DNA of 64,000 nt. Origin: Hippopus hippopus (lineage: Eukaryota; Mollusca; Bivalvia; Cardiida; Cardiidae). Under the pieces are notes generated by a model. That model had not been told where the DNA came from and searched no databases. It saw nothing but the letters and a program-made list of their open reading frames with translations. Within the stretch, counting starts at the first letter, position 1, and each line of letters begins with the position of its first letter. Below, piece by piece: positions 17,216 to 31,792 of the stretch. The stretch covers positions 39,078,357-39,142,356 of the forward strand of contig OX328108.1 in the NCBI GenBank assembly GCA_946811185.2. The letters run 5' to 3'. A program made the translations under genes and the position numbers.

Positions 17216-17245
17216 CCCCTCCCCCACCCCCTCCCCCCTCTCCCC
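17216..17245 (-). other. G-quadruplex-capable C-rich tract
   Basis: Runs of four to six C separated by single A or T bases (CCCCTCCCCCACCCCCTCCC and onward), giving G-runs on the minus strand. It lies just inside the left TIR and has no counterpart inside the right TIR. A quadruplex there could affect strand-displacement replication, but that is speculation. Confidence 0.55.
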
Positions 17246-17367
17246 GAATCGTTCGTTGCTCGTAATTTTAACCTCTATCATTCTTACATGAAGATACGCT
17301 TTAAAATCACTGCTCATTAATTATACAAAGTTCTGTGAAAATTGGATTGAAAGGATCTTTTGAGGTG

Positions 17368-17713
17368 GTAAGTTTTATTTTTATATTAATTCTTAATATA
17401 TTAGACAGTCAATAATTCGTTATACCGGTGTACAGAGATTTTTCTTTTTTCTTATTAACGATTATGCAAACAATTTAAAAATTGGATAGAAATTGATAAC
17501 ATAATGAGGAAAAAAAAAATACAGTGATATATTCGCAATGATAGGACCATGAAACTTGTTTATACATAGTGTATTTCATAATAGAAAATATGGTGGAAAA
17601 GTAATTTTTTTTTTTTCGATTTTTCTATTTCTTATCCCTCTCAAACTGTTTTCCTTATATTATCATATAGAATTATTTTCATTTATAAATGGTGTTGTTT
17701 TTTTTTCTTTCAG
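17368..17713 (+). other. Possible 5' UTR intron of polymerase gene
   Basis: A good donor (GTG|GTAAGT at 17368) and a strong acceptor (polypyrimidine run ending TTTCTTTCAG at 17713) bracket a 346-bp AT-rich stretch between the left TIR and the polymerase ATG. Inference only; transcripts would be needed to confirm it. Confidence 0.35.
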
Positions 17714-17774
17714 GCATAAAGCAGCTGATACATGTGCTATTTATTCCTAAAGTAAATAAATATGAGTAAAGGAT

Positions 17775-17965
17775 ACAAGAACGTGAGGAACTATTTATAG
17801 ACATTACGAATAGAGTACAAGTTCTAACCTGTTCATAGGAAACAAGAACGTGAGGAACTATTTATAGCCATTACGAATGGCGTACAAGTTTTATCTTGTT
17901 TGTAAGACACAAGAACGTGAGGAACTATTTATAACACAATAGCGTACTAGTTTTATCATAATCAT
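17775..17965 (+). repeat. Three 67-bp direct repeats upstream of PolB
   Basis: Units start at 17775, 17842 and 17909 with ACAAGAACGTGAGGAACTAT. Each contains CTATTTATAG (CTATTTATAA in the third), which reads both as a TATA-like element and as a perfect MEF2-type CTA(A/T)4TAG site. Their position, ending about 35 bp before the polymerase ATG, suggests a promoter or enhancer array. A 13-codon upstream frame starts at 17762 and stops inside the first unit. Confidence 0.7.
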
Positions 17966-17998
17966 TTACTTTGTATCAGTGAACCTCTTACTGTGAAA

Positions 17999-20900
17999 AT
18001 GGATTCCTTCGAGATGGCTTTAGAGACAATGGTCCAATCTTATACCGATGCTGAAGAGTTGATGAATTTTTCTGCGACCATGGGTATTCAGGATTCCCCT
18101 ATTGTAAGGTTCCGTTTATTCCAACTGCGAAATCCGGAGTACAGTGATCATTTTATAAATGAACAAATTGATTCGTTATTTCATAATTTAGGAGGTCCAG
18201 TGGCTATAACCAATGACAGTAGTGACTTAGATTTGGAATCGGTAAGAATAGAAAAAGAGATACAGGGGGCAATAAAAGCGCTTCTGTTTGACGACGAAAT
18301 GGAGGAAACTGCTCGAGTTTGTGTTGAAGATGGGGAATGGAATCCTGTACTCCCTCCAAATCAGCCTCAGCCAGGATCTTCGAACGATATTCGGTATAAT
18401 ATTCGAAAGAAGTCTGAGAGAACGTATGCCAAAAACAAGGCTGTGGACAGGACCTATGAGATAAAAATAGACGAAAGACATTACGGTCAAAGTATAAGTG
18501 GTATTCAAAGAGGACTTGAGCAATTATTCGAAAATGTATTAAATGAGACCGGAGGTAATGTATCTGGTAATGACTTGGGACGGGTAATTATTCAACACGA
18601 AGGACTTGATAACCCTATTATAGTTCCACTACAGAGATGGGATCAACTTAATGCGGCACAAGTTATAGAGGTCATTATGAAAGTGCTAAATAGCCATCAA
18701 GAACTGTTAATTGATCAGAGTTTTATTATTGTTATTGGTTTGATCATTTTGCCAAAAGGGTCATCAAAACGACAAATGACAAAAGTAAAGGGTAAGAACA
18801 ATTTGGTACATCTAAAAAGGTCCCTTGTAACTATTGAAAATAAAGACAATTTGTGTATGGCTAGGGCTATAGGGGTCAGTTGGGCAAAATTAAACAGATG
18901 CACTGTAGATGAATGGAAAGAAATAAGGAAAAACAGAGGGGAAAGAAGTAATATAGACTTGATTTTAGAACACAGAAAAGTACCCGAAAGTTATTATAAA
19001 AATTTACGCAATAAGAGTAGAAACGAACAAAAGAAATTCGCCCAAGCACTGTGCCATGCCGTCGGTGTGAGCACCGAGCAACCCGGTGTGAGCACCGAGC
19101 AACCCCTCAGTTTAAATGATGTTAGGATGTTTGAAGAATTCCTTGGTGTTCGTGTAATGGTGGTGAGTGCTCGCTTAGGAAACAAATTTATAACCGTGGC
19201 TAGCAATGACAAGTGTCCATGCATTTATATTTATTTGGTTGATGATGATCACTTTCACGCCATTACCAGCATCACGGGATTTTTCAGTTGCAGTTATTTC
19301 TGTACAAAATGTCTCAAACATTATAATGACAGAGAAGGACATCAATGTGAAATAAAATGTATTGTCTGTAAAAGTGACTCGTGCCTTAACGTAGAACCTG
19401 TGAAATGTAGCGACTGTAATATGTCCTGCAGATCGGCAGTTTGTTACGCTGAGCACAAAAAAGTTACAACATACAAATTTGGGCCTAAAAAAGGACAACC
19501 CAGTGGCCCTTCACCATGCGAAAAATGGTGGAAGTGTCCCACATGTTTCAAGGTGTTGAGAACAGACAAACGCAAAAAGGAGGAGCATCGATGTGGCGAA
19601 TACCAGTGCTCCTCCTGTCACAAATATGTCATGGATGATCATAAATGTTATTTAAGAGCCACACCGGCCAAAGAATATTACATTCCAAAATTTATATTTT
19701 TTGATTTTGAATGCAGTCAGGATGAGATGAGTTACTGCGTTGAAGGATACGTACCCGATTCAAAATTAAATTGTAAGGACTGTCAATTGCCAGAGATGTG
19801 TAAATCTTGCTCCAAATGTCAGAATTGCAAAACAGCATGGTGCGGTAAAGCGACCCACCGTCCAAACTTTGTTGTGGCTCATTCAGTATGCCCTAAATGC
19901 ATTGAAAAAGAACTGACTCCCGATTCCGTATGTAAGGGTTGTGGTACCCGTTGTAAGGAATGTGACAATTTTGATCTGCACGAGAATGAGGACCCAGGTC
20001 CTTGTCCCGGTAAATGCGGATTCAGAGAAGTCATATTCGAGGGCGCGGATACGGCCGAAAAGTTTGGACAGTGGCTCTTTACGGATCAACACGAATATTT
20101 CAAGGTTGTTGCCCACAACATGAAAGGGTATGATGGCTATTTTATTCTGGAATATTTGATCGATCAATCCATAAGACCTGCCAAAATTATTTACAACGGC
20201 TCAAAAATCATGTATATGACAGTGGAGAAAAATTTACATATAAAGGTGATTGACAGCCTCAGCTTTTTACCCATGAAGTTATCAGCACTCCCGAAAGCAT
20301 TTGACTTGCAAGAATTGAAAAAAGGGTGGTTCCCGCATTATTTTAATACTAGAGAGAATCAAAATTATGTTGGACCCTACCCTGATGCTAAAGATTATGG
20401 TTATGATTTTATGAGTGAGAAAGAAAGAAGCGAGTTAGTAGCGTGGCTGAGTGAGAGAGAGAATGAAATATTTGATTTTAGAAAAGAAATGTTACAATAT
20501 TGTAGAAGTGATGTAGATATTTTAAGACAAGCTTGTATGAAATTTAGACATTTATTAATGAGTGCTACGGGGGAAGAGAAAGTGGTTCTCAATAAAAAAG
20601 GGAAGGAAGAGAAACAATGGGTTGGAGCCGTGGATCCATTCGATTCAGTCACTATAGCTTCCGTTTGCATGAACGTTTTTAGAACCAAATTTTTGGAAGA
20701 AACATGGCGCGTAAAACTGAAAGGCAATGATCAATGGGTACCCGCAAAAGTCATCGACGAAAAATTGTACATACAAAAGGGAAACGAATGGGTCCACGAA
20801 TCCGAATTGAAAGGAGTGAAAGTGTGCAAGAAAGAATTTGTAAGTACCCCCATGGCGGAAATGGAAGAAATATGGCGCGTAAAACTGCACGGCAATGATC

Positions 20901-22807
20901 AATGGGTACCCGCAAAAGTCATCGACGAAAAATTGTATATACAAAACGGAAACGAGTGGGTCCAAGAATCCGAATTGAAAGGAGAGAAAGTGTGCAAGAA
21001 AGAATTTGTGAGTTCCCCCATAGCGAAAATTCCTCCCAGTGGTTACAATGATCAATACAGTAAAGCGTCAATTCAATGGTTAGAGTGGAGGGCGAAACTC
21101 GATAACGTTCATATCCAACATGCTTTGAATGAAGGGGAGAAAACGATCCCCGGCACTCGCTACAAATTGGACGGATATTGTAGAGAAACCAACACGGTCT
21201 ATGAATATCACGGATGTATATTTCATGGATGCCCCGTGTGTTTCTCTGACAATCGTGAAGAAACGTATCACCCACTCACACACCAGTCTTTGGACGAATT
21301 GTACGCGCTGACATTGAAAAAACAAACACGCCTCGAAAATTTAGGTATGAAATATATTTGTATTTGGGATCACGATTTCAAAAAACAACAAAACCAAAAC
21401 CCTGAACTTCGGCAATTTATTTCTCAGCTAGATGTCATGGATCGACTTGACCCGAGAGAAAGTTTCTTTGGGGGTCGCACCAATGCTAGCCGGCTTTATT
21501 ACAAAGTAAAAGAAAACGAGCGAGTGAAATATGTGGATTTTACGAGTCTTTATCCTTGGGTAAACAAGTATTGTCGTTATCCCTTAGGTCACCCCTCAGT
21601 CATTTTCAAAGATTTTGGGGACATCAAGGATTATTTTGGTATTGCCAAGGTGAAGATTATCCCGCCCAGGGGACTCTATCACCCAGTCCTTCCTTACAGG
21701 TCTAATGGCAAACTAAAATTTTCTTTATGTCGGACCTGCGCGGATACCGAAAGTCAAACCCCGTGCGAATGTACAAATGAACAAAGAGAGTTGACTGGTA
21801 CGTGGTGCACCCCCGAAATACAAACGGCTGTCAGATTAGGGTATAAAATCACAAAAATTTATGAAGTATACCACTGGGAAGAAAGCACTCAATATGACCC
21901 CAAAACCAATAAAGGAGGACTGTTTGCTCAATATATTAACACATTTTTGAAATTCAAACAAGAAGCAAGTGGTCCTCCCGTTTGGATTAAATGTTACGAT
22001 GATATGAATAAGTACATCGGGCAATATGTGGAAAAAGAAGGGGTCTCATTGGATCGAAAAAATATTCGACAGAACCCAGGACTTAGAGCTTTGGCAAAAC
22101 TGTGTCTCAATAGCTTTTGGGGGAAGTTTGGTCAGAGACTTAATATTCGACAAACGGAATTTTTTCACGAAAGTCAGGCCAACATGTTTTTTCAACTTTT
22201 TTCCGATCCATTGAAGCAACCCATCAATTTTCATATATTGTCTAATGATATGATACAAGTTGAATTGCAGTATAAGAACGATTGTCAACCCGAAGATAAC
22301 AAGACCAACATATATTTGGCAACATTTACAACGTGCTGGGCCAGACTTAAACTTTACAGTGTACTTGAGCAGCTGGGTAGAAGAGTCCTGTATTATGACA
22401 CAGATAGCATCATATACGTGAGTCGTCCAAATGAGTATGATCCACCTCTAGGTGATTATTTGGGTGAACTGACGAATGAGCTTCAGAATGGAGAGTACAT
22501 TGTGGAGTTTGTGTCTGGGGGGCCAAAAAATTATGCCTACAAAACGAATGAAAACAACGAAACTTGTAAAGTGAGGGGATTTACCCTAAATTATAAAAAC
22601 AGTCAACTCATTAATTTCCATACCGTGAAAGATATAGTCGCAGACCCTCAAAGTAGTTCAAATATCACTGTGACCAATCCTAGTAAAATTTGTAGGGACA
22701 AAAGGAAAAGAAAATTGTATAATAGAGAAGAACAAAAAAGTTATCAAATGGTTTATACAAAAAGACGAAAAGTAGACCACTTTGATACAGAGCCATACGG
22801 GTTTTGA
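17999..22807 (+). CDS. Protein-primed DNA polymerase B with OTU-like and Vsr-like domains
   Basis: Family-B polymerase expected to replicate the element from its termini by protein priming. The first ATG (17999, context AAAATGG) gives 1602 aa. Exonuclease motifs: ExoI DFE (D569, E571), ExoII N707/D712 in VAHNMKGYDG, ExoIII Y834/D838. Polymerase motifs: A DFTSLYP (D1180), B KLCLNSFWG (K1367, N1371), C YYDTDS (D1467, D1469). All catalytic residues are present. N-terminal to the exonuclease lie an OTU-like cysteine-protease motif DNLCMARA (C286) with a candidate histidine in DDDHFHAI (H418/H420), and a cysteine-rich zinc-finger region (about 426-650). Between ExoIII and motif A are a 56-aa tandem duplication (about 900-1011) and a Vsr-like endonuclease signature, DGYC...YEYHGCIFHGCP (D1058, E1069). 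It is clearly longer than common Polinton polymerases. A small tandem repeat GVSTEQPGVSTEQP follows the OTU-like part. Function certain; the roles of the N-terminal domains are inferred. Confidence 0.97.
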   Translation: MDSFEMALETMVQSYTDAEELMNFSATMGIQDSPIVRFRLFQLRNPEYSDHFINEQIDSLFHNLGGPVAITNDSSDLDLESVRIEKEIQGAIKALLFDDEMEETARVCVEDGEWNPVLPPNQPQPGSSNDIRYNIRKKSERTYAKNKAVDRTYEIKIDERHYGQSISGIQRGLEQLFENVLNETGGNVSGNDLGRVIIQHEGLDNPIIVPLQRWDQLNAAQVIEVIMKVLNSHQELLIDQSFIIVIGLIILPKGSSKRQMTKVKGKNNLVHLKRSLVTIENKDNLCMARAIGVSWAKLNRCTVDEWKEIRKNRGERSNIDLILEHRKVPESYYKNLRNKSRNEQKKFAQALCHAVGVSTEQPGVSTEQPLSLNDVRMFEEFLGVRVMVVSARLGNKFITVASNDKCPCIYIYLVDDDHFHAITSITGFFSCSYFCTKCLKHYNDREGHQCEIKCIVCKSDSCLNVEPVKCSDCNMSCRSAVCYAEHKKVTTYKFGPKKGQPSGPSPCEKWWKCPTCFKVLRTDKRKKEEHRCGEYQCSSCHKYVMDDHKCYLRATPAKEYYIPKFIFFDFECSQDEMSYCVEGYVPDSKLNCKDCQLPEMCKSCSKCQNCKTAWCGKATHRPNFVVAHSVCPKCIEKELTPDSVCKGCGTRCKECDNFDLHENEDPGPCPGKCGFREVIFEGADTAEKFGQWLFTDQHEYFKVVAHNMKGYDGYFILEYLIDQSIRPAKIIYNGSKIMYMTVEKNLHIKVIDSLSFLPMKLSALPKAFDLQELKKGWFPHYFNTRENQNYVGPYPDAKDYGYDFMSEKERSELVAWLSERENEIFDFRKEMLQYCRSDVDILRQACMKFRHLLMSATGEEKVVLNKKGKEEKQWVGAVDPFDSVTIASVCMNVFRTKFLEETWRVKLKGNDQWVPAKVIDEKLYIQKGNEWVHESELKGVKVCKKEFVSTPMAEMEEIWRVKLHGNDQWVPAKVIDEKLYIQNGNEWVQESELKGEKVCKKEFVSSPIAKIPPSGYNDQYSKASIQWLEWRAKLDNVHIQHALNEGEKTIPGTRYKLDGYCRETNTVYEYHGCIFHGCPVCFSDNREETYHPLTHQSLDELYALTLKKQTRLENLGMKYICIWDHDFKKQQNQNPELRQFISQLDVMDRLDPRESFFGGRTNASRLYYKVKENERVKYVDFTSLYPWVNKYCRYPLGHPSVIFKDFGDIKDYFGIAKVKIIPPRGLYHPVLPYRSNGKLKFSLCRTCADTESQTPCECTNEQRELTGTWCTPEIQTAVRLGYKITKIYEVYHWEESTQYDPKTNKGGLFAQYINTFLKFKQEASGPPVWIKCYDDMNKYIGQYVEKEGVSLDRKNIRQNPGLRALAKLCLNSFWGKFGQRLNIRQTEFFHESQANMFFQLFSDPLKQPINFHILSNDMIQVELQYKNDCQPEDNKTNIYLATFTTCWARLKLYSVLEQLGRRVLYYDTDSIIYVSRPNEYDPPLGDYLGELTNELQNGEYIVEFVSGGPKNYAYKTNENNETCKVRGFTLNYKNSQLINFHTVKDIVADPQSSSNITVTNPSKICRDKRKRKLYNREEQKSYQMVYTKRRKVDHFDTEPYGF
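20696..21031 (+). repeat. Tandem 168-bp duplication inside PolB
   Basis: Two in-frame copies (20696-20863 and 20864-21031), nearly identical in DNA, each encoding 56 aa with WRVKL, GNDQWVPAKVIDEKLYI and CKKEFVS. It lies between the exonuclease and polymerase motifs. The module is unrecognised; the high DNA identity implies recent duplication. Confidence 0.9.
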
Positions 22808-23553
22808 TAGTCGATCTCTGTCAAATTTGCTTTCAACGATATTACGACATTTATATGTAAACCTGTAAGATATTTCTTCATTGTCACTCAATTCTCAAAA
22901 AGATAAAAAAAAAAAAATGTCACTCAATTTTCAAAAAAATGTCACACAAATATTAAAAATTGTCAAACAAATATTAAAAAGTGTCACTCATTTTACGTTT
23001 TTGTACGTTTACACGTAAATTCTCAAAGGCTCAAATTAAAAAAAAGTACCACTTATTTTCCAAAAAGTGTCACTCATTTTTCAAAAAGTGTCACTCATTT
23101 TCTAGAAAGTTTTAGTCATTTTTTTTTTTTTTTTTCGTGCCAGTCACTTTACATCCCCCCACAATAGTATTTTTTTTCTTATTTCTGGCGCGAAATCTAA
23201 AAATACATTAAGAGGCTACGTAACCCTTTATGGGAGCACATTAAAAAAAACTTCAGGTGTGGGTGTGGGTGTGTGTGTAATTTTATGATTCTTAATCATT
23301 GATGATTTGTAATGTCTTTGTTTCATATAAATTTCAGTGATGTATATATTCTTTAATTTGATGAGAGAAAATCTAAATACCCACCTTTAAAGGTTTTACT
23401 CATATTTCCAAAGACTAACTGTTATTCATTTTATTCTATCATGGTCGTATTGCTTGTAAATGTTATTCATTTTATTCGATCGTATTGCTTGTAAATTAAA
23501 AGATAGTAAGAAAGAATTTCTCTTTGCGTCTTGAGTTAATCCAACGTAAGAAT
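22808..23553 (+). promoter_or_regulatory. Gap between PolB and late-type gene cluster
   Basis: Contains a degenerate array (about 22880-23150) of eight to ten short units like AAAAAGTGTCACTCATTTTT. An E2F-like site GGCGCGAAA lies at about 23186, a (GT)n-rich stretch at 23257-23278, a TATA-like TATAAAT at about 23326, and two ~40-bp repeats (GTTATTCATTTTATTC...GTATTGCTTGTAAAT) at about 23420-23495. It probably holds the 3' end of the PolB transcript and the promoter of the membrane protein/ATPase cluster. No protein-coding frame is credible. Confidence 0.5.
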
Positions 23554-23814
23554 ATGACAGAAACTCCGGAAAAAGAAACGTTTTTACGTTTCCCTAAACC
23601 TGACGAAGAAAGTCAGAGTGACAAGTGGCATTTACTTGGTACCCGGGTCCCACAAGCAGAGATTGTCTACTTTTGTCAGATGATCATAGTGTACATCATT
23701 ATTATTACAGCGATCGTCAATCTATCCATAAAAAACGGTTCTACCGAACTCTGGGTATCACTTTTGAGTAGCTGTATCGGATACGCTTTACCTAACCCAA
23801 AACTTAAGAAATAA
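23554..23814 (+). CDS. Small two-helix membrane protein of Polinton type
   Basis: 86 aa from the first ATG at 23554; a longer frame upstream would need a non-ATG start. The N-terminal third is charged and proline-bearing (FLRFPKPDEE). It is followed by a strong hydrophobic helix (VYFCQMIIVYIIIITAIVNL) and a second segment ending in LLSSCIGYALPNPKLKK. The gene sits directly before the packaging ATPase, with stop and start overlapping as TAATG. I believe this kind of short protein with a GYxLPNP tail recurs next to the ATPase in Polintons, but I cannot name a function. A virion-membrane or assembly role is possible. Confidence 0.7.
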   Translation: MTETPEKETFLRFPKPDEESQSDKWHLLGTRVPQAEIVYFCQMIIVYIIIITAIVNLSIKNGSTELWVSLLSSCIGYALPNPKLKK

Positions 23815-24467
23815 TGGCCGTCCCTCTTCCCTTCGAACCATGTTCTAGTATGTGTATTAGCGGACAAACTGGTAGTGGTAAAACCCAATGGGTGTATCGC
23901 TTTTTGAAACAAGTAAACCTCATGTACGGACGAGACCCCCCTTCCCATATTCTCTATTGCTACGGTATCCACCAAGACTTGTTTGATGCCATGGAGAGTT
24001 CCATTCCAAACTTTTACAGTAAGCAAGGATTGCCTACTGCGGAAGAATTGGATGACTTCACAAAAGACAAAAAACACAAGTTAATCATTTTAGACGACCT
24101 AATGCACGAGGTCATGCGGAGTAAAGAAATGGAGCTACTTTTCACACAAGGTTGCCATCACAGAAAAGTATCGGTGATTATGATCACGCAAAACTTATAT
24201 CCCGGGGGTAAACATGCCAGAACTATTGCACTGAATACCTGGTATCTGGTACTTATGAAAAATATTCGAGACATATCTCAGGTAGCGGTATTAGGACGAC
24301 AGCTTTATCCCCGTAAGTCCAGAGGGTTTATGCAAGCTTACGAAGATGCCCTTAATACGATACACGGTTATTTCATAGTGGACATGTCCCCTCACTCCGA
24401 TAACAAGTACCGTTTAAGGACACTTATTTTTCCCAACGAGGAGCCTATTGTGTACCGTTTGACGTAA
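23814..24467 (+). CDS. FtsK/HerA-superfamily genome-packaging ATPase
   Basis: 217 aa, the usual size for Polinton ATPases (related to poxvirus A32 packaging ATPases). Walker A is GQTGSGKT (17-24). Walker B is KLIILDDL (D94, D95). The following VSVIMITQNLYP (about 119-130) carries the polar sensor residue typical of the family. It would drive DNA translocation into capsids. The start codon overlaps the stop of the membrane-protein gene (TAATG), so both probably come from one transcript. Intact, no missing catalytic residue. Confidence 0.95.
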   Translation: MAVPLPFEPCSSMCISGQTGSGKTQWVYRFLKQVNLMYGRDPPSHILYCYGIHQDLFDAMESSIPNFYSKQGLPTAEELDDFTKDKKHKLIILDDLMHEVMRSKEMELLFTQGCHHRKVSVIMITQNLYPGGKHARTIALNTWYLVLMKNIRDISQVAVLGRQLYPRKSRGFMQAYEDALNTIHGYFIVDMSPHSDNKYRLRTLIFPNEEPIVYRLT

Positions 24468-24499
24468 GAATGGCGATAATGAGCTTATAAGAAGACAAT

Positions 24500-24823
24500 A
24501 TGGTTGAACTAATCAAACAACAACGACACTTCCTATATTTAGTGGCCAACACTACAGCCGCCCAAAGAAAGTCGCTTTTAAAAACAATTACCAGTCAGCA
24601 ATTAAGAGCACTTAGTCAAATTGCATACAATATTATCCGGTTTAAAGGCAGATTGTCCCTTACGGAAAAAAACAGCTTAAAACGGCAGAGACGCTTCATT
24701 TACTTGCTTGGAGATCGTAATATTGGGTTTGTTCATAAGAAGGAAGCCATTCAACATAAACAACGTATTATCCATAAATTGGTGAAGATCGCTTCCGCCT
24801 ACTTACAAACCGTATTACAGTAA
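24500..24823 (+). CDS. Small basic helical protein, copy 1
   Basis: 107 aa, strongly basic, predicted mostly helical, no membrane segment. It aligns along most of its length with the leftward protein at 27141-27488: QRKSLLKTITSQQLRAL here against ERKNLLQNLSNRRLKAI there, then a basic RQRRFIYLL/ERRRLLLRTL block. The pair are therefore paralogues on opposite arms. Basic charge and location beside packaging and capsid genes suggest a DNA-binding or core role, but no named function is assigned. Its stop overlaps the next start (TAATG at 24821). Confidence 0.75.
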   Translation: MVELIKQQRHFLYLVANTTAAQRKSLLKTITSQQLRALSQIAYNIIRFKGRLSLTEKNSLKRQRRFIYLLGDRNIGFVHKKEAIQHKQRIIHKLVKIASAYLQTVLQ

Positions 24824-25014
24824 TGGAGAAATACGTATTAGTGCCTTTCGAAAAGTTTGAGCGATTGAAAAAACTGTCTGGGAGACAAGATGATCGGCAG
24901 AGAGAGGGAAGGGAAGATCCCCCGAAAAAGAAGAAGAATAGAAAATTAACACTTTTTCCTCCGGGGCTTAGAGAGAAGAAAAGAAAGAAAGATATAGACT
25001 GGATTTCTTTTTAA
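24823..25014 (+). CDS. Small lysine-rich protein
   Basis: 63 aa, starting by overlap with the previous stop. The N-terminus is MEKYVLVPFEKFERLKKL, the middle is lysine/arginine-rich, then LFPPGLREKKRKKDIDWISF. The C-terminal KDxDW motif also ends the leftward protein at 26387-26731. The charge pattern resembles viral core or condensation peptides, which is an inference. It is the last gene of the rightward arm. Confidence 0.65.
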   Translation: MEKYVLVPFEKFERLKKLSGRQDDRQREGREDPPKKKKNRKLTLFPPGLREKKRKKDIDWISF

Positions 25015-25047
25015 ATAATAAGACAATTTTACATTTTTTTTTATATT

Positions 25048-25072
25048 TTTATTTACAAAATAATACAATAAA
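25048..25072. terminator. Back-to-back poly(A) signals between convergent arms
   Basis: AATAAA at 25067-25072 on the + strand and its complement TTTATT at 25048-25053 (AATAAA on the - strand) lie in the ~100-bp gap between the last rightward gene and the capsid gene, so the 3' ends of both arms probably overlap. Confidence 0.7.
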
Positions 25073-25115
25073 AGTATGAAAGAAGCCACGAGTCATTTTT
25101 GTTTTCCTCCATAAT

Positions 25116-26378
25116 CTATTGTATATACACATTTCTCGCTTTATCGATCGTAAGTATTTCTGGAAAGGTTGCGTACAGTAGCAATGTCACACTTTCTGGT
25201 AAAGGTTTAGCAAATTTGATTTCCAAACGGCAAAGACCTCTTCTTTTTGTGCTAAAAGAATAGTAGGGATCGATATCCAACACGTATAGGCAGTATCCTT
25301 GCTTGTACTCTGTGTACGTGATGTTGATATCATTTCTACAGGAAGTGAGGGTCTGATAACAGTCGGTGAAATGATTTCCTTCAAAATTAGGTTGCAATGG
25401 TTGCGATGGTACGGATTGTCCATCAACGAAGAAACCGAGGTAACTGCAGTCGTAATGTTTCAGGTTGAATGGGTTTGTTTTGTAGTCCCCGTTATACGAA
25501 ACGCTTGGAACCGCCCCTATGATGATTTTGTTTGGCACCCTACCTTGAAATATATCGTCTGCGTGAAAACTATATTGTCCCTGCGCTATCGAGGTTGTTT
25601 TTATCTCTGAGCGGAAATAAGGGTACATAGCCGGAGTGTCCTGAATCATTTTGTCATGGGCCAAAAGCAAATCGTTCTGTAACCGCTGAATACAGAGCTT
25701 GAAACGGGCGTCAACGATTTGCACCTTGTAATTCGGAGTTAACGCATCTGTAATGATTCGAAATGCATCGGATGCTTGCCAAAATTTAAGCGCCATTTGC
25801 ACTCCGTTTATAAGTAACTTTGGTTGTTGAAATAAGTCCACCGGGATACTCCCTTCTAGATCTATAATCTTACCACCCTTGGTCCTATCATATCTTTGAA
25901 ATAAACCGCCATTTGATCCAGTTTTTGGGTCGCTATCGTCCAGATTTGGGTCATCCTTGAAAAATAATTGGCTGGTCAGAAAAGCTTCCTGTATAGATCG
26001 ATTGGTATTTAGTATGGTGTCAATGTAGGCCTTATACGGATGAGTTGTTCCGCTATTCGGGAGTGGTTTTTGTTGTAAATGAATGTCCAGTTGTCTGAAA
26101 ATGGTGTGCAAGGGTAAATTGATTAGTCCTAGCGTGTCATCTGCGGTCACGGGGGTACCGTCTTGTAAAGCCAGTCTTAATTTCAGCCTCAATTTACATT
26201 CCTTCAAGTTGATATAGGCGCTGGCCTGTGGCGGTATATTAAATTCTAAGCTCGATGAAGAATCAGTTACGGGATTAATGGGTCGAAATTCGATCCAATC
26301 TTTCGATAACAAGGACGAATCTTTCGTGATCGTGTTAAATAACGATAATTCTTCTATGTGTTGCATTTTACTATTCAT
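25116..26378 (-). CDS. Double-jelly-roll major capsid protein (hexon-like, Polinton PY)
   Basis: 420 aa from the first ATG at 26378; a four-codon upstream extension would start at TTG and is rejected. The sequence matches the widespread invertebrate family that includes C. elegans F54H12.2, recognised as the Polinton major capsid protein. Marker stretches are SAYINL (53-58), LPLHTIFRQLDIHL (88-101), HPYKAYIDTIL (113-123) and TSQLFFKDDP (135-144), then RVPNKIIIGAV and the C-terminal GLCRLEIKFAKPL. It is full length and uninterrupted, and would form the icosahedral shell. It lies 8 bp downstream of the coiled-coil gene and is the last gene of the leftward arm. I saw no TATA box just upstream. 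Confidence 0.92.
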   Translation of the reverse strand: MNSKMQHIEELSLFNTITKDSSLLSKDWIEFRPINPVTDSSSSLEFNIPPQASAYINLKECKLRLKLRLALQDGTPVTADDTLGLINLPLHTIFRQLDIHLQQKPLPNSGTTHPYKAYIDTILNTNRSIQEAFLTSQLFFKDDPNLDDSDPKTGSNGGLFQRYDRTKGGKIIDLEGSIPVDLFQQPKLLINGVQMALKFWQASDAFRIITDALTPNYKVQIVDARFKLCIQRLQNDLLLAHDKMIQDTPAMYPYFRSEIKTTSIAQGQYSFHADDIFQGRVPNKIIIGAVPSVSYNGDYKTNPFNLKHYDCSYLGFFVDGQSVPSQPLQPNFEGNHFTDCYQTLTSCRNDINITYTEYKQGYCLYVLDIDPYYSFSTKRRGLCRLEIKFAKPLPESVTLLLYATFPEILTIDKARNVYIQ

Positions 26379-26386
26379 CGTAAATT

Positions 26387-26731
26387 TCAAAATACCCAGT
26401 CGGGATCTTTGCGATACGTTTTGCGAGTCTTCTTACGCTTGGTGTTCTTACGATCTTCGTCTTCACCATTCTTACGTTTAATCTGAGATTTTGCCCTATC
26501 AACGGCTTCGGTTAACGGGCTCACCATTTTTACCTGAGGCGTTTTGACTTTTTCAAGTTTTTCTTCCATATCCCGCAGCAGTTTATTCTTTTCTTCTAGT
26601 ATTTTCTCCAAATTCCTTATTTGATCTGGGATATGGTCTTTCGGTTTAAAATAGTTAATCCAATACTCCACATCTTCTTTGTACGGAACCCACTTCTGTT
26701 GTTCTGAATCAAAGACGTCTATGGAACCCAT
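26387..26731 (-). CDS. Coiled-coil basic protein of capsid cluster
   Basis: 114 aa. An N-terminal part with aromatic residues (FDSEQQKWVPYKEDVEYWI) leads into a clear coiled coil (about 37-62, IRNLEKILEEKNKLLRDMEE). The tail is rich in lysine and arginine with nuclear-localisation-like stretches and ends KDPDWVF. Its start overlaps the end of the penton-like gene by 13 bp. The tail motif KDxDW is shared with the 63-aa protein of the other arm. Probably a minor virion or core protein; not recognised by name. Confidence 0.7.
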   Translation of the reverse strand: MGSIDVFDSEQQKWVPYKEDVEYWINYFKPKDHIPDQIRNLEKILEEKNKLLRDMEEKLEKVKTPQVKMVSPLTEAVDRAKSQIKRKNGEDEDRKNTKRKKTRKTYRKDPDWVF

Positions 26732-27144
26732 GATTTCTTGAAATGAAGGACGCAGTGAAAATCGTTCGATTTCAAATCAATGGGTTTTAAATCTTCGCTT
26801 TTTAACGACAGTCTAATAGTGTTAAATCTTTTGACACTCACGGGTCTATAACGTCGATGAAGACATTCGGTAAATTTAAATTTCTTGTATCTTGTTTCGA
26901 TTTCTATGCTGGTGAGAACGGGTTGTAACTTGTTCCTGACAAACGCTTCCTCTATGATATCGCAATTCAAATACAATCGCTTACTTCGAGGTGTAAAGTC
27001 ACAGGTCAATGACGATTCTACGAGAGCACATAACCAACTTCCTTCTAAAATATAGTCTTTAGAAAACTGGAACAAGAAATCGGCGTTATTCTTACGTATA
27101 TCGATCGATTCTGCGCAATTCAAATATAGGTAAAACTCTGTCAT
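26719..27144 (-). CDS. Probable minor capsid (penton) protein
   Basis: 141 aa, beta-strand-rich, beginning MTEFYLYLNCAESIDIRKNN, with ILEGSWLCALVESS, LYLNCDIIEEAFVRNKLQPV and a C-terminal TIRLSLKSEDLKPIDL...CVLHFKK. Size, operon position upstream of the major capsid protein and the strand pattern fit the single-jelly-roll penton protein of Polintons (PX). Assignment rests on recalled family features and context; structure prediction would settle it. It overlaps the genes on both sides by a few bases. Confidence 0.6.
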   Translation of the reverse strand: MTEFYLYLNCAESIDIRKNNADFLFQFSKDYILEGSWLCALVESSLTCDFTPRSKRLYLNCDIIEEAFVRNKLQPVLTSIEIETRYKKFKFTECLHRRYRPVSVKRFNTIRLSLKSEDLKPIDLKSNDFHCVLHFKKSWVP

Positions 27145-27488
27145 TCTTCTCTCCTCGTTCTCAATTCGTCAAGTATGGTAGGAATGAGATAAACTGGGCG
27201 TAATAAAATGGGTATAAATGAATGAAATCGTTGAAGTAAAGTCTTCTTACGGCTAGATGAAACGTTATTTGAGCATAGTGTGCGTAACAATAGTCTCCTT
27301 CTTTCGAAATTTTGAACATCTCTTCTCATTGGATTAATGATTCCGTTAAGGATACGTTTTGCTACCTCGATGATAGCCTTTAGTCGACGATTCGATAAAT
27401 TCTGCAGTAAATTCTTCCTTTCCGCCGTGTCGGTCTCTTGTAGGTGTAGTAAATAAGAGAAATGTAAATAAACTGTAGAGTGTTCCAT
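27141..27488 (-). CDS. Small basic helical protein, copy 2
   Basis: 115 aa from the first ATG at 27488; a longer frame to 27542 would start at TTG. It is a paralogue of the rightward 107-aa protein: TAERKNLLQNLSNRRLKAII here against AAQRKSLLKTITSQQLRALS there. A basic block FERRRLLLRTLCSNN and a helical tail follow. It starts 20 bp after the TBP-like gene and overlaps the penton-like start by 4 bp, so it is probably co-transcribed with the TBP-like and capsid genes. Function unknown. Confidence 0.75.
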   Translation of the reverse strand: MEHSTVYLHFSYLLHLQETDTAERKNLLQNLSNRRLKAIIEVAKRILNGIINPMRRDVQNFERRRLLLRTLCSNNVSSSRKKTLLQRFHSFIPILLRPVYLIPTILDELRTRREE

Positions 27489-27507
27489 GGTTGAATTGTT
27501 GAAATAC

Positions 27508-28035
27508 TCATTCCTTCTTACGCGTATAGAGTTCGAGTTCAATTAGTGTGGGACAAACAACCTCGTCCTCTTGTTGTGGAGAGGTTACACCCGTTATAAC
27601 CACTTTCCCCGTATGAAAGCAACAAAAATGCACACCTTTCCGTTTAAAGTTAAGGGAAGGAAATAACTCTGGTTCGTATACGACATCTCTATCGAAAGAC
27701 AAACGCTTCAGATCCAAATTCGAACTGAGGGTATGGCTCATAGACATGGTTAAAAGTTTTGCGTCCGAAAAATTTACGGGATATCCGCAATTCTGAAGCA
27801 GTCTGGCATATTTTCGTATCCGTTTATACCCCTCTCTTTTACTCGAAGCTTTACCGTTACAGTTGATAATACCGTTAGAAAACACTAAACAATTTCCTCC
27901 AATTTTTCTGTGCTGCCATATCAACCCGAGAAATCGTGCTGGATCATACCGTACATTCGTTATTTTGTAGCAGAGTTGTCTTAAATCAATATGGCAGTTG
28001 AGTTGAGCGCTGTAGACCACGTTTGTGATGATCAT
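27508..28035 (-). CDS. TATA-binding protein (TBP) homologue
   Basis: 175 aa covering the whole two-repeat TBP core and nothing else. Repeat 1 has YDPARFLGLIW, LVFSNGIINCNGKAS and RKYARLLQNCGYPVNF; repeat 2 has VVYEPELFPSLNF and FHTGKVVITG. The four phenylalanines that kink TATA DNA are in place (F35, F52, F125, F140). The spacing F35 to F52 is 17, as in cellular TBP; F125 to F140 is 15, two shorter. The stirrup YEPELFP that contacts TFIIB and the basic helix KRIRKYAR that contacts TFIIA are retained. YEPELF points to a eukaryotic rather than archaeal ancestry. It is divergent overall, so it is not a recent host pseudogene. A consensus TATA box lies 52 bp upstream of its ATG. Expected role: recruiting RNA polymerase II machinery to element promoters, or competing with host TBP. 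TBP is not a standard Polinton gene as far as I know. Confidence 0.87.
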   Translation of the reverse strand: MIITNVVYSAQLNCHIDLRQLCYKITNVRYDPARFLGLIWQHRKIGGNCLVFSNGIINCNGKASSKREGYKRIRKYARLLQNCGYPVNFSDAKLLTMSMSHTLSSNLDLKRLSFDRDVVYEPELFPSLNFKRKGVHFCCFHTGKVVITGVTSPQQEDEVVCPTLIELELYTRKKE

Positions 28036-28086
28036 GATCGTTTGACTGTCTACACATAAATGATTGAATATTGCTAGTTTTCATTC

Positions 28087-28094
28087 CTTATATA
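28087..28094 (-). promoter_or_regulatory. TATA box of the TBP-like gene
   Basis: TATATAAG on the minus strand, 52 bp before the ATG of the TBP-like gene. A SINE starts immediately upstream of it (28096), so any distal promoter sequence has been displaced. Confidence 0.65.
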
Positions 28095-28095
28095 G

Positions 28096-28330
28096 CGAGC
28101 TCCGTTAGGTTAGTCGATAGAGTGCTGGACTTCAATGCACGAGGTCAAGCGTTCGATCCCTGACTACCACCCCCTGGCTCGATCTATTTTTTTTTCTTTA
28201 AATTGATGATAGTCACTGCGCCAGGATTCATTCCTCTCCCACCAATGACCATTGTTTTGACGTTAATCATGTGGGAAAACACCCAGTGGCTTGGAAAGAA
28301 AATTGCGCGAAGTACTTGCAAAAGAAACTC
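28096..28330 (+). mobile_element. tRNA-derived SINE inserted in the Polinton
   Basis: The head resembles a degenerate tRNA: A-box-like TTAGTCGATAGAGTGCTGG and B-box-like GCGTTCGATCCC. It is followed by a T-rich spacer and a tail with AGGATTCATTCCTCTCCCAC and ATCATGTGGGAAAACACC. A second copy lies inverted at 57261-57443 with the same order of parts, which proves it is a dispersed element. It sits between the TBP promoter and the integrase 3' end and does not interrupt a gene. The antisense open frame of 78 codons at 28184-28420 is an artefact of it. Confidence 0.8.
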
Positions 28331-28447
28331 GAGGAACGCGCGGATAGCTGTACTGTCCGCCGTGATATAATTAAGATAATGTTGAAAACGGCGTAAAACA
28401 CCACACAATCGAGCAATCAATTCAACCCTTTATATGTAATCAATTGT

Positions 28448-29560
28448 TTACGAGTATTGCGTAATATCAGTTTCCGGTATCCAGCTGTCATACTTTTTTG
28501 GCCAGTGTAACCATCGCACCAGGACTTCCCGCTTTTTATTGCGTGTCCTTCTTTTCAATATTTTTTCGATGCTAAATTCGGTACCTTCGTCAACATTTAT
28601 AGCTTGCAATTCTTGCTCGTAAAATGTACCGTCGATTTCGTCATTGTCCCAGTCTACTAAGGTGTAAACTGGAATTCCTCGTCTTTTAAAGCGTGATTTG
28701 ATTTTGAAGATCTCCCCTGTCCATTTTTGCGAGTATTCTCTGTCAAATACGGACCTGATGTGCGACAATCGTACAGTCTGACCGATTTTATATTTCATTT
28801 TTTTGATAACGGGCTGTTCCCGCTTACTTCCCTTGGTTCTAATGAGATACTGTTGAAGACGGCTTTCCCCCTCATTTTCCATGGAAATTGCTGCTGGATT
28901 TTCTCCGAGACTCCTATGAGAAGTATGATTGTAACTATGTACAACATCCTGTAAAATGTCAATGTACCGACGGGTTCTATTCTTGAGCAGGTATCAAAAA
29001 ATCTTGTGTTTTATGGTTTTAATGACTCTTTCGGCGTAATTCGCCTTTGTTTCCGTGTTATACGCGTACAGGTGATGTATGTTTTGACTTTTTAAATATG
29101 TATTTACTTCTTTGCTTCTAAATTCCATTCCTCGGTCCGTACGAATTGTTTTTGGTTTTTTGGGGCCTGTCAGTATACGTTTCAAGACCGTGACTAAATC
29201 AGCGCCTCGCTTACTCTTAACGGGTTGAGCATAAAGAAAACGAGAAAAGACATCGATAGCAATCAAAATATATTTCACACCTTCGTTATGCTTCTGTAAA
29301 TTGACCATATCCATAAGATCTATATCCCATTGACTATCAACCCCCTCAACGATCACTCTGGATCGTATAAATCGGCGTCTAGCCCCCCTCGTAAGCGAAT
29401 AGGACTCTTGATCCTGTAGCCATTTTCGTATTCGATGTCTACCAATGTTGTATTTACCCTGTGCTTTTACATACTGGTACAATTTCTCGGGGCCGCTAAA
29501 ACTAGCAGGATTATTGGAATCAAAATAAATAGAAGACAAGTATGTTTTCCAGTCATCCAT
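28448..29560 (-). pseudogene. Polinton integrase with one in-frame stop
   Basis: Retroviral-type DDE integrase that would insert the element and make its 6-bp duplication. The first part (28994-29560, 188 aa from an ATG) has a helical N-terminal domain and the catalytic core: D81 in WDIDLMDM, D142 in RTDRGMEF, E177 in NYAERVIKTIK, giving D,D(35)E spacing. A TGA at 28994-28996 interrupts it soon after the catalytic glutamate. The same frame then continues without another stop to 28448. That second part contains an SH3-like DNA-binding region (KIGQTVRLSH...PVYTLVDWDNDEIDGTFY) and a chromodomain (FSIEKILKRRT...LVRWLHWPKKYDSWIP). The frame is otherwise intact, so this is a recent single nonsense change, a sequencing error, or a readthrough codon. 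As it stands the element is probably not autonomous for integration. Confidence 0.93.
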
Positions 29561-29757
29561 GTTTTAATCAAATATACATAACTTACATTCTTACAAAATA
29601 TAGTATTACAACAAAACTGAATACAAAGGTCTAATTTGGTATGCATATAAAAAAGTGAGAAATCGTTCCATTTCGATTTCTATTTCTGTTTTTATATGTC
29701 TATAATGTATCCATTCACCAATCAATACAATCATCATATGCACAAGTCCAAACATGA

Positions 29758-30246
29758 TCACCAGTTATTTATAAACTCGTTCGGGTTACACTCTGTACAC
29801 TGAAGGGCTCCTAATTGGTTCATATGATCACTCTGCAGGTAACAGGGTATCACACCGTCCAATTCGGGTAAAGTTTTTCCAATGTTTGGCATAAGTTCTT
29901 TTAATCGTTCGTATTCTTTTGGTCTCAAGCAAATGCCTTTTTTGGTCGGCGCTACTTCTTCATTCGGTTTCCAATATTGTCTAATATCTACGCAAACGCT
30001 GCTTTCGCCAATACTGCAATGCACGTTGCCCCCGATGTGATATCCGTATGATACCTTATTTTCGAGGGCTTTGTCAACGTACTCTATTTGATTTACCAGG
30101 TTCTTCCAACGCATCAGAGTTAAGCTTATGCCTTTTTTGGTGGGTTTGTCATCTTTCCACTCCCTAATATCGACTCTCAATTCACCTCTCCATTCGTTCA
30201 CTTGTACGTAGCGTTCGTTACCGAGACTGAATTTTTCTCTTATCAT
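29758..30246 (-). CDS. Tandem PC4/p15-type transcription coactivator, ssDNA-binding
   Basis: 162 aa with two PC4 domains. Domain 1 (about 5-60): RYVQVNEWRGELRVDIREW then PTKKGISLTLMRW. Domain 2 (about 68-128): GGNVHCSIGESSVCVDIRQYW then PTKKGICLRPKEY. Cellular PC4 has one such domain and dimerises to bind single-stranded or melted DNA, assisting RNA polymerase II initiation. Here two are fused, so the protein may work as a built-in dimer. A short tail has C135, H141 and C150-x2-C153, possibly zinc-binding. Roles could be promoter melting, or ssDNA protection during strand-displacement replication. Same arm as the TBP-like gene and with its own TATA box 54 bp upstream. Confidence 0.85.
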   Translation of the reverse strand: MIREKFSLGNERYVQVNEWRGELRVDIREWKDDKPTKKGISLTLMRWKNLVNQIEYVDKALENKVSYGYHIGGNVHCSIGESSVCVDIRQYWKPNEEVAPTKKGICLRPKEYERLKELMPNIGKTLPELDGVIPCYLQSDHMNQLGALQCTECNPNEFINNW

Positions 30247-30299
30247 GTTGTTCGTTCGAGTGCCAAAACTCTAATGACTTCTACACACATACTACGGAG

Positions 30300-30306
30300 T
30301 TATATA
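30300..30306 (-). promoter_or_regulatory. TATA box of the PC4-like gene
   Basis: TATATAA on the minus strand, 54 bp upstream of the PC4-like ATG (30246) and just downstream of the stop of the 109-aa gene. Confidence 0.6.
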
Positions 30307-30329
30307 GTCATAAAGTTTCTTCTGATTGG

Positions 30330-30659
30330 TCAGTTTTTTCTTACATCTGACGTGTATAAACAAGTACCCTTTGCGACAGGGTAAGCTGTTACTACGAAGA
30401 TTCTGTATTTGGTCCTGGAATAAACTACTTTAACTGTACGACTCGGTTGCTTTTTGTGTCCCAATAAACCAATGTTGTACATAAATGTCTTTGTAGCTTC
30501 GAAACGTTTTCCAATTTTCGTACAGGCGTCGGGTTTTTCCAAACATCTTTCTACCGATTCGTACATGGTGCCTTTATCAAAAAACACAGAAGCCTGAGAA
30601 TGACTTGCATTCAAATGCTTGTCAACCGTATGGGTAGAAAGTTTGAAGTCGATTTTCAT
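30330..30659 (-). CDS. Unrecognised 109-aa protein next to right TIR
   Basis: First gene of the leftward arm. No signal peptide or membrane helix. It contains HTVDKHLNASHSQASVFF in the N-terminal third, then GKRFEATKTFMYNIGLLG, and ends with VKVVYSRTKYRIFVVTAYPV. The F..NIG plus late V(V)TAYP pattern loosely resembles small RNases of the barnase/EndoU/colicin-D type fold, but conserved catalytic residues cannot be proved by eye, so no function is assigned. Its ATG falls inside the 271-bp subterminal repeat, and a TATA box lies 49 bp upstream, so its promoter is TIR-derived. Confidence 0.65.
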   Translation of the reverse strand: MKIDFKLSTHTVDKHLNASHSQASVFFDKGTMYESVERCLEKPDACTKIGKRFEATKTFMYNIGLLGHKKQPSRTVKVVYSRTKYRIFVVTAYPVAKGTCLYTSDVRKN

Positions 30660-30926
30660 GTCGAAAGGTTATACTCTCAGTAATTGTGTACAGACATCGC
30701 AGCAATATTTATATAACGCAAATAAACAACAAATAGAGACTTGACCGGACACGTTTGAACGAGATTAAACGTGCTGTTCACATCCTGCGAAATGATCTTG
30801 ATCTACTCTTTAATTTTCAATTCGACATCAATAACCGAAATATTGCTGTTCCATCAAAGTTTTGATTTGGGAATTAAAATATCTCCTTAGCGTGTTCTAT
30901 GCAGTCTGATCTTGATCTACACTGTC
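30656..30926. repeat. Subterminal direct repeat, inner copy
   Basis: Appears identical to 31271-31541 (offset 615 bp), beginning TCATGTCGAAAGGTTATACT and ending at ACTGTC, overlapping the inner edge of the right TIR by 16 bp. It forms the promoter region and includes the start codon of the 109-aa gene at 30330-30659. The left end has only one copy of this block (about 16543-16813). Confidence 0.9.
30708..30715 (-). promoter_or_regulatory. TATA box of the 109-aa gene
   Basis: TATATAAA on the minus strand 49 bp upstream of the ATG at 30659, within the subterminal repeat. Identical copies occur in the outer repeat (about 31323-31330) and, facing inward, in the left TIR (16754). Confidence 0.6.
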
Positions 30927-31786
30927 AGCCCAAAGGTCAGTGAGTTACGCTTACCAGTCAAAGGGTTAATAATAGATGAAAGGCCGCGGGTTTTGACATT
31001 TTCCGTACTAACCTCCCAGGAAGCAGAATCGAGAGAGATTAGTATTAGTTGTCAGAACTTGTTTCTCAATCGATGTAAAATAAATATGTTTAAACTAACC
31101 ACCTTTACGATTTCAAATTTGTTCATTCACTTTATAGTACTAGACCCCCCTGGAATCATCTTCAATCAGTCTTCAAGTACCTTTAAGTATCTGAAAGACG
31201 ATTAATTCCCACTCACTAATATTTGAAAAATACTTTAAGTCGAGTGATTCTATAAGAAAACAGTATAAGGTCATGTCGAAAGGTTATACTCTCAGTAATT
31301 GTGTACAGACATCGCAGCAATATTTATATAACGCAAATAAACAACAAATAGAGACTTGACCGGACACGTTTGAACGAGATTAAACGTGCTGTTCACATCC
31401 TGCGAAATGATCTTGATCTACTCTTTAATTTTCAATTCGACATCAATAACCGAAATATTGCTGTTCCATCAAAGTTTTGATTTGGGAATTAAAATATCTC
31501 CTTAGCGTGTTCTATGCAGTCTGATCTTGATCTACACTGTCCTTAACAAATACCTCCTTAGCGTGTTCTGCGCAGTCTGATCTTGATCTTGAAGTTTCTG
31601 AATTATGTATATACGTTGTCTTCACTCAAATCACTCTTCAAACAGCCTTCAAGTACCTGTAAACATCGTTAGGCGGATTTAGTACCACTGACTAATATTT
31701 GAAAAGCACTTAAAGATGACTGACGCTATCAAACACAGTGTGAAAGAAGGAAAAATTGGTGACGCCCAAGAAACCATTATACTACT
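30911..31786 (-). repeat. Polinton right TIR (876 bp)
   Basis: Inverted copy of 16298-17173. Unlike the left end, the right end also has a 271-bp direct repeat of TIR material just inside it (30656-30926), so the termini are asymmetric. Confidence 0.95.
31271..31541. repeat. Subterminal direct repeat, outer copy
   Basis: Outer partner of 30656-30926, lying wholly within the right TIR. Identity over all 271 bp suggests very recent duplication or homogenisation of the ends. Confidence 0.9.
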
Positions 31787-31792
31787 GGTATA
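31787..31792. repeat. Target-site duplication, right
   Basis: GGTATA, identical to 16292-16297, immediately outside the right TIR. Confidence 0.93.

What the first reader, a model, noticed from the sequence alone, without database searches (positions are those of the whole stretch)
27508..28035. A Polinton that encodes its own TATA-binding protein
Seen: a 175-aa intact frame inside the element covering both repeats of the TBP saddle, with the four DNA-intercalating phenylalanines at F35, F52, F125 and F140, the TFIIB stirrup YEPELFP and the basic KRIRKYAR helix. Known: TBP nucleates RNA polymerase II, I and III initiation; TBP-like genes are known from some giant DNA viruses but are not part of the standard Polinton gene set as I know it. 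Inferred: the element redirects host initiation machinery to its own TATA promoters, or competes with host TBP.
Basis: partly seen in the sequence, partly recalled or inferred. Interest (0 to 1): 0.95.

Follow-up and report, generated by a model that had tools for sequence, protein, structure and literature searches.

The report
Virus-like jumping element with TATA-binding protein
A virus-like mobile element (a Polinton), whose gene is present in very many near-identical copies in its host genome (probably a bivalve's), carries its own intact version of the protein that starts gene transcription (TBP) plus a second transcription helper (PC4), which suggests that it brings its own promoter-recognition kit.

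The parts
16298..31786 (.). whole element (Polinton), 15,489 bp
   Evidence: 876-nt perfect inverted repeats at both ends; 6-bp duplication GGTATA outside
16298..17173 (.). left terminal inverted repeat
   Evidence: 100% complementary to 30911-31786
30911..31786 (.). right terminal inverted repeat
16292..16297 (.). target-site duplication GGTATA (left)
   Evidence: same six bases at 31787-31792
31787..31792 (.). target-site duplication GGTATA (right)
27508..28035 (-). TBP gene, 175 aa, both repeats
28088..28094 (-). TATATAA box of the TBP gene, 59 nt before ATG; initiator-like TCATTT at -28
   Evidence: subfamily B copies printed have AATATAAAAAG at about the equivalent place
27141..27488 (-). 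ORF of the capsid cluster following TBP (first ATG at 27488); unknown function
   Evidence: dS to subfamily B 0.17
26719..27144 (-). ORF141 of the capsid cluster, conserved Polinton protein (minor capsid protein possible, not shown)
   Evidence: homologue in the Solemya-associated piece, 29% identity, E 2e-15
26387..26731 (-). ORF114 of the capsid cluster, charged, unknown
   Evidence: 91% identical in subfamily B
25116..26390 (-). major capsid protein, double jelly-roll by fold, 424 aa from a TTG start ('F54H12.2-like')
   Evidence: AlphaFold pLDDT 84.5; Foldseek best Sputnik 3j26 8e-16, then mavirus, iridovirus, PBCV-1; 190 homologues of 3043 candidates
29758..30246 (-). tandem PC4 transcriptional coactivator gene, 162 aa
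   Evidence: Pfam PF02229 1.2e-25, two stretches; solved human PC4 7.9e-08
30300..30306 (-). TATATAA box of the PC4 gene, 60 nt before ATG; TCATTA at -31
30330..30659 (-). ORF109, unknown, with TATATAA 56 nt before ATG
28994..29560 (-). integrase (rve) piece; in this copy the frame ends before the chromodomain part
   Evidence: Pfam rve 2e-13
28448..28882 (-). integrase chromodomain piece
   Evidence: Pfam Chromo 9.2e-10
17993..22807 (+). DNA polymerase B of the organellar/viral type, 1604 aa from a GTG start
   Evidence: Pfam DNA_pol_B_2 4.5e-46
23814..24467 (+). A32-type packaging ATPase, 217 aa
   Evidence: Pfam Pox_A32 8.1e-07
28084..28427 (.). insert with a tRNA-like part (by eye) between integrase and TBP, in subfamily A; SINE-like
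   Evidence: no tRNA called by ARAGORN

Best explanation
This is a true TBP-family protein that belongs to a lineage of animal Polintons and is carried as the head gene of their capsid module. SHOWN BY COMPUTATION: the TBP family and predicted fold, retention of the TFIIB-contact glutamates, purifying selection between subfamilies, shared history with the capsid genes, a TATA/initiator-like sequence in front of it, and a PC4 coactivator gene in the same element. INFERRED: the protein binds promoter DNA of the element, bends it, recruits host TFIIB and RNA polymerase II (no TFIIB gene was found among the 13 ORFs scanned), and with PC4 gives the element its own promoter-recognition step, most likely for the capsid (late) genes. 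Changed presumed DNA-facing residues make it likely that its preferred sequence differs from that of host TBP, so early genes (TBP, PC4, ORF109) with ordinary TATA boxes would be started by host TBP and a second class by the element's TBP.
Against: No expression, binding or transcription data. TATA-like words are not enriched in the element overall (14 and 22 per strand; about 17 expected), and no TATA box in that window precedes polymerase, the ORF before the ATPase, or integrase. A residue equivalent to human E191 (a TFIIA contact, recalled) is R in 163 of 175, so canonical TFIIA binding may be lost. A Polinton piece at the end of a Solemya symbiont scaffold has integrase, ORF141 homologue and capsid genes but no TBP in the 13.5 kb held, so TBP is not essential to all Polintons. 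Within-subfamily dN/dS, on very few changes, is higher (0.20-1.68). 33 of the 42 TBP contigs had no capsid partner in the capped list. 'Late' is by analogy only.
Confidence: 0.6

Rival explanations
1. Decoy or inhibitor: the element's TBP occupies TFIIB, TAFs or host TATA boxes and so lowers host transcription, without starting transcription of the element itself.
For: TFIIB contact residues are kept while the presumed DNA face and the E191-equivalent are changed; at least 149 open gene copies could give a high dose.
Against: Most intercalating phenylalanines and the whole predicted saddle are conserved, which a decoy would not need; PC4 in the same element points to a transcription role; TBP shares the history of the capsid genes.
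Confidence: 0.2
2. Ordinary TBP: it recognises the same TATA boxes as host TBP and merely raises TBP supply for the element's TATA promoters.
For: TATATAA boxes with an initiator-like TCATTW about 30 nt downstream at TBP and PC4; a TATA box is seen at the TBP gene in the 5 subfamily B copies printed although the flanking DNA differs (the 2 older copies L012 and L018 lack it).
Against: Residues differ from human and Arabidopsis TBP in most of the family: N to T96 in 176 of 181, V to S98 in 174, V to N58 in 150, T to N60 in 145. That these face DNA is recalled from TBP-TATA structures. The subfamily B PC4 gene has TATATTA instead.
Confidence: 0.2
3. Non-transcriptional DNA-bending role, for instance in terminal-repeat recognition, replication or packaging.
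For: TBP lobes are general nucleic-acid modules (PMC7221094, section 7 and passages); the gene heads the capsid cluster.
Against: TFIIB-contact glutamates would not be needed, yet are conserved.
Confidence: 0.08
4. A recently captured host TBP exon or a chance insertion, decaying.
For: None of weight; of the 22 distinct copies read, three carry a stop in TBP (L013, L018, L019), L012 is in two frames and L009 and L010 match only from residue 4.
Against: 33% identity to the host TBP exon while that exon is 95% identical to human over 57 residues; separate from the cellular rows at 100/100; purifying selection; relatives in several bivalves.
Confidence: 0.01

Closest known systems
Cellular TBP (PF00352; human, yeast, Arabidopsis)
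   Same: Two-repeat saddle, four intercalating phenylalanines in this copy, TFIIB stirrup E-P-E-L, basic helix
   Different: 32-33% identity; no N-terminal extension; N58, N60, T96, S98 and R29; encoded by a mobile element
Viral TBP-like proteins of Nucleocytoviricota and mirusviruses
   Same: TBP fold encoded by a double-stranded DNA virus; BFVD hits such as Heterosigma akashiwo virus TBP 8.3e-11; mirusviruses carry TBP in 59% of genomes (PMC10132985 passages)
   Different: 15-kb Polinton; TFIIB glutamates kept; no TFIIB gene found; PMC7221094 reports a different pattern for most viral TBPs
Beta/gamma-herpesvirus TBP mimic (ORF24/BcRF1)
   Same: Virus-encoded TBP-like factor that works with host Pol II at a distinct (TATT) class of late promoters (PMC7498053 passages)
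   Different: The herpesvirus protein has a Pol II-binding N-terminal domain and is one of six viral proteins needed; here only a 175-aa core is present
Animal Polintons / Mavericks (adintovirus-like)
   Same: Long inverted repeats, 6-bp duplication, DNA polymerase B, rve and chromo integrase, A32-type ATPase, double jelly-roll capsid
   Different: TBP and PC4 genes, not in the gene set that I recall, nor seen in the listings and passages; no protease found among the ORFs scanned

Membership tests
TBP family (PF00352) | two tandem TBP repeats above curated cut-off | tested here: met
   96.4 bits, cut-off 22.9, two stretches
TBP family (PF00352) | saddle fold | tested here: met
TBP family (PF00352) | four intercalating phenylalanines | tested here: met
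   F35, F52, F125, F140 in this copy; in the family F140 only 105 of 181
TBP family (PF00352) | TFIIB-contact glutamates | tested here: met
   E121, E123 in this copy; 148 and 171 of 181 in the family
TBP family (PF00352) | binds and bends TATA DNA | not testable with these tools
   needs EMSA, SELEX or structure; presumed DNA-facing residues changed
Polinton/Maverick | long terminal inverted repeats and 6-bp target duplication | tested here: met
Polinton/Maverick | family B DNA polymerase | tested here: met
   4.5e-46
Polinton/Maverick | rve integrase with chromodomain | tested here: met
   rve 2e-13 and Chromo 9.2e-10 in two frames of this copy; one shared open frame in 3 of the 4 copies displayed on the plus strand
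Polinton/Maverick | A32/FtsK-type ATPase | tested here: met
   8.1e-07
Polinton/Maverick | double jelly-roll major capsid protein | tested here: met
   by predicted fold
Polinton/Maverick | adenovirus-type protease | tested here: inconclusive
   no protease among the 13 ORFs scanned with Pfam; one search lists no ORF of 100 aa or more between the capsid gene end (25116) and the plus-strand ORF ending at 24823; antisense and shorter ORFs were not scanned. In L030 the ORF after the capsid gene gives only a weak C5 hit, 0.069
Orthologue of host TBP (recent capture) | groups with cellular TBP, high identity | tested here: not met
   33% identity; 40 element rows form one side of a 100/100 branch with stem 1.72
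TRF2 / TBPL1 | groups with TBPL1 | tested here: inconclusive
   TBPL1 falls with the cellular rows, but its sequence was recalled and the tool warned of long branches meeting
Orthogonal viral TBP-TFIIB pair | TFIIB-like gene in the same element | tested here: inconclusive
   13 of the element's ORFs scanned with Pfam, no TFIIB; other ORFs not scanned
PC4 family (PF02229) | PC4 domain above cut-off | tested here: met
   89.2 bits, cut-off 25; human PC4 7.9e-08

The most novel reading that the evidence does not exclude
These Polintons define a second core-promoter system inside an animal nucleus: an element-encoded TBP with an altered DNA-reading face, aided by an element-encoded PC4, uses host TFIIB and Pol II at element-specific (capsid/late) promoters that host TBP reads poorly. 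The TBP gene is inherited and swapped as part of the capsid module, which would make it a late-gene switch comparable to the herpesvirus TATT system but with a bona fide TBP.
Probability: 0.3. Interest if true: 0.92.

Novelty: new variant of a known kind. Interest (0 to 1): 0.82.

Why it matters
TBP is the near-universal starter of nuclear transcription. A 15-kb mobile element that keeps its own TBP and PC4 under purifying selection, with at least 149 open TBP frames in one genome, is a natural experiment on how far TBP specificity can be moved while TFIIB binding is kept. It gives a testable route to how Polintons time capsid expression, an open question because, as far as I recall, no Polinton has been seen to make particles in such hosts. 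It also warns annotators: genes of this family are filed as 'TBP' (Mytilus edulis), 'TATA-box-binding protein-like 1' (Mercenaria) or 'TATA-box-binding protein 2-like' (Crassostrea virginica).

Tried and rejected
Recent host capture: rejected by identity, tree and dN/dS. Decayed fragment: rejected. Looking for contexts in IMG/VR with the TBP (single and profile), the capsid protein (single and profile) and PC4: nothing in 5 scans. GTDB contigs with the TBP profile: nothing; with the capsid profile: one locus, L030. PHROGs: only marginal hits. ARAGORN found no tRNA at the tRNA-like insert. The E191 argument for TFIIA rests on recall; a paper search for E191R with TFIIA returned none. Enrichment of TATA words over the whole element: none. 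The PC4-like ORF in L030 is under the Pfam cut-off (E 0.051) and is not claimed. Of the 9 shared contig lengths one (2986) comes from different sources and is probably chance, and 3585465 is a long scaffold and weak; that call's jitter control had mean 0.655 and maximum 7, so one search was limited to 4-100 kb. The PC4 family was asked of the own genome but did not complete, so its copy number is unknown. The tree tool warned that long branches meet (TBPL1, Pyrococcus), so only the separation of element and cellular rows is used.

Full report

THE ELEMENT. Perfect 876-nt inverted repeats (16298-17173 and 30911-31786) are flanked by GGTATA on both sides. Between them lie DNA polymerase B, an A32-type ATPase, integrase and chromodomain pieces and a 424-aa protein whose model (pLDDT 84.5) matches Sputnik, mavirus, iridovirus and PBCV-1 capsid proteins (8e-16 and weaker). 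This is a Polinton. In this copy the integrase and chromodomain lie in two frames; in 3 of the 4 copies displayed they share one frame. On the minus strand TBP is followed by ORF133 (first ATG 19 nt below the TBP stop), ORF141, ORF114 and the capsid gene, with overlaps of 4, 13 and 4 nt as listed (the last counted from a TTG start).

IT IS A CONSERVED GENE. The protein search gave 143 hits among 172 candidates, the best 89% identical. A profile of 14 divergent members gave 403 hits among the 7998 candidates scored. Each call lists 120; together 186 different TBP rows were seen, and unlisted hits may include cellular TBPs. Named animals among the listed rows are all bivalves: Mercenaria, Pinctada, Mytilus edulis and galloprovincialis, Crassostrea virginica, Tegillarca; two further rows belong to MAGs labelled Sedimenticola and Thiodiazotropha, probably host DNA (inference). 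Most rows have no name. Because the database gives no context I used contig lengths as fingerprints: 9 exact lengths between 4 and 100 kb, each with the same source on both sides, are shared by the 42 TBP contigs and 28 capsid contigs in that range, against mean 0.16 and maximum 3 in 20,000 jittered controls. The other 33 TBP contigs have no partner in the capped capsid list. Two genes of one MAG carry the tags ABW072_02025 (TBP) and ABW072_02035 (capsid) on contigs of equal length. A Tegillarca gene model (283 aa) contains TBP and, behind it, an integrase part (rve 0.0028, below the Pfam cut-off; 2.7e-16 against the integrase of L030).

COPIES IN THE HOST GENOME. The window's own assembly (1.07 Gb, unnamed) was searched with PF00352: 150 matches scored of 409 candidates, and with the human TBP core: 150 scored of 208 candidates. 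In the latter one is a host exon (92% identical to human); the other 149 span both repeats (query 3-152 or slightly more) without a stop, at 32-36% identity to human. Only the best candidates are scored, so these are lower bounds and favour intact frames. I read 22 distinct copies. They fall into subfamily A (with the window) and B (89-91% identical proteins), plus older ones (L012, L018). Three of them (L013, L018, L019) have a stop in TBP, L012 is in two frames, and L009 and L010 match from residue 4. The 8 other A copies compared differ from the window by 3-8 nt of 525, so the burst looks recent.

SELECTION AND MODULES. Between A and B, dN is 0.040-0.058 and dS 0.21-0.26, ratio 0.16-0.28 (NG86, 14 sequences). 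Within subfamilies, on very few changes, ratios run from 0.20 to 1.68 or are undefined. Between A and B dS is similar for the whole capsid cluster (0.17-0.31) and chromodomain (0.34-0.35), but 0.65-1.28 for the integrase piece, 1.8-1.9 for PC4, and 3.1 in one polymerase stretch and not computable in two others. The polymerase pieces (L025, L028) are taken to belong to the same copies by distance only. So the two lineages appear to have exchanged a block that runs from the integrase end through TBP to the capsid gene; TBP shares the history of the capsid genes. The A-B alignment is interrupted at 28083 by a 344-bp insert of subfamily A with a tRNA-like part. In the copies printed (5 of A with the window, 5 of B) a TATA box stands at nearly the same distance from ATG; the two older copies lack it.

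ORIGIN. The window protein is 33% identical to the host TBP exon over 57 aa, whereas that exon is 95% identical to human. In a tree of 40 element rows (39 of 186 database rows plus the window) and 5 cellular rows, the element rows form one side of a 100/100 branch with a stem of 1.72 changes per site. The cellular set is small, one member is recalled (TBPL1), the tool warned that long branches meet, and giant-virus TBPs are missing, so the donor is unknown. Only a recent capture is excluded.

HOW IT MAY WORK. Alignment of 181 element rows with human and Arabidopsis TBP (further columns) shows what is kept: F35 175 of 180, F52 181 of 181, F125 167 of 181; F140 is F in 105 and H in 67 of 181. 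The TFIIB glutamates E121 and E123 are kept in 148 (D in 14) and 171 of 181. The basic helix R74, R78 and K/R82 is kept in 168, 176 and 140 of 181 (the window itself has N82). PMC7221094 (sections 7, 11 and 12 read; other passages) reports that other viral TBPs vary at the TFIIB positions, do not keep the N-lobe signature, and mostly come with a viral TFIIB. Here no TFIIB appears among the 13 ORFs scanned. What changed: N to T96 (176 of 181), V to S98 (174), V to N58 (150), T to N60 (145), and E to R29 (163 of 175). By recalled TBP-TATA structures the first four face the minor groove, and the last is a TFIIA contact. Prediction: host TFIIB is used, the DNA motif is shifted, TFIIA may be dispensable.

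A SECOND INITIATION FACTOR. ORF162 (29758-30246) is a PC4 coactivator with two PC4 stretches (1.2e-25; human PC4 7.9e-08), kept in subfamily B (76-77% identical, dN/dS about 0.09 with dS near saturation). TBP, PC4 and ORF109 have TATATAA 59, 60 and 56 nt before ATG; TBP and PC4 also have TCATTW about 30 nt further down. Three of six gene starts have such a box in a window that random positions hit at 1.9% (post hoc P 1.2e-4). In subfamily B the PC4 box reads TATATTA. Polymerase, the ORF before the ATPase and integrase have none there.

AGAINST. No expression data; TATA words are not enriched overall; the Solemya-associated piece L030 has no TBP in the held 13.5 kb and a different ORF between integrase and ORF141. 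TBP is thus a lineage trait, not a Polinton constant.

KNOWN OR NEW. Searches of the held library for Polinton with 'TATA-binding protein' (3 papers), 'TBP' (2), 'TFIID' (1), 'PC4' (0), Maverick with 'TATA-binding protein' (2) and a mixed search (78 papers, 20 listed) showed no title or abstract start that reports a TBP or PC4 in Polintons. I saw passages of PMC10675990 (the TBPs there belong to mirusvirus-like elements), PMC11071296, PMC11071308 and PMC10120064 (no 'TATA' or 'TBP' in the main text), PMC10132985, PMC7498053 and PMC8905726, and only the listings for the rest. Supplements and papers outside this library were not seen. Viral TBPs as such are known, so I file this as a new variant of a known kind.

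Noticed in passing
29758-30246 (minus): Tandem PC4 transcriptional coactivator gene inside the element, with its own TATA box; the search for Polinton with PC4 returned no paper.
   Followed up: partly
L026 785-1171 (minus), subfamily B copy: Extra ORF with a BIR (inhibitor-of-apoptosis) domain, 9.8e-25, between PC4 and integrase; not among the ORFs of 100 aa or more listed at that place in the window.
   Followed up: partly
18810-28083 against L011, L022, L025-L029: Strong mosaic: capsid-TBP block about 92% identical between subfamilies, polymerase stretches 67-75%; suggests recombination between Polinton lineages.
   Followed up: yes
L030 1-3989: End of a Solemya velum gill symbiont scaffold (NZ_JRAA01000003.1) carries a Polinton piece (integrase, ORF141 homologue, capsid, protease-like): probably host DNA joined to the symbiont assembly, or an unusual transfer.
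   Followed up: partly
28084-28427: SINE-like insert with a tRNA-like part between integrase and TBP in subfamily A; TATA-like words lie on both sides of it, perhaps a duplicated target.
   Followed up: partly
24500-24823 (+) and 27141-27488 (-): Two small ORFs look alike by eye and may be paralogues on opposite strands.
   Followed up: no
20694-21029: 168-bp tandem duplication (93% identical) inside the polymerase gene, in frame.
   Followed up: no
17793-17995: Repeated GGAACTATTTATA-type sequence just upstream of the polymerase gene, with TCATTT at -37: a TATT-like box and a possible second promoter class.
   Followed up: no
14128-15696 and 35171-36115: 145-bp satellite-like arrays on both sides of the element, outside its inverted repeats.
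   Followed up: no
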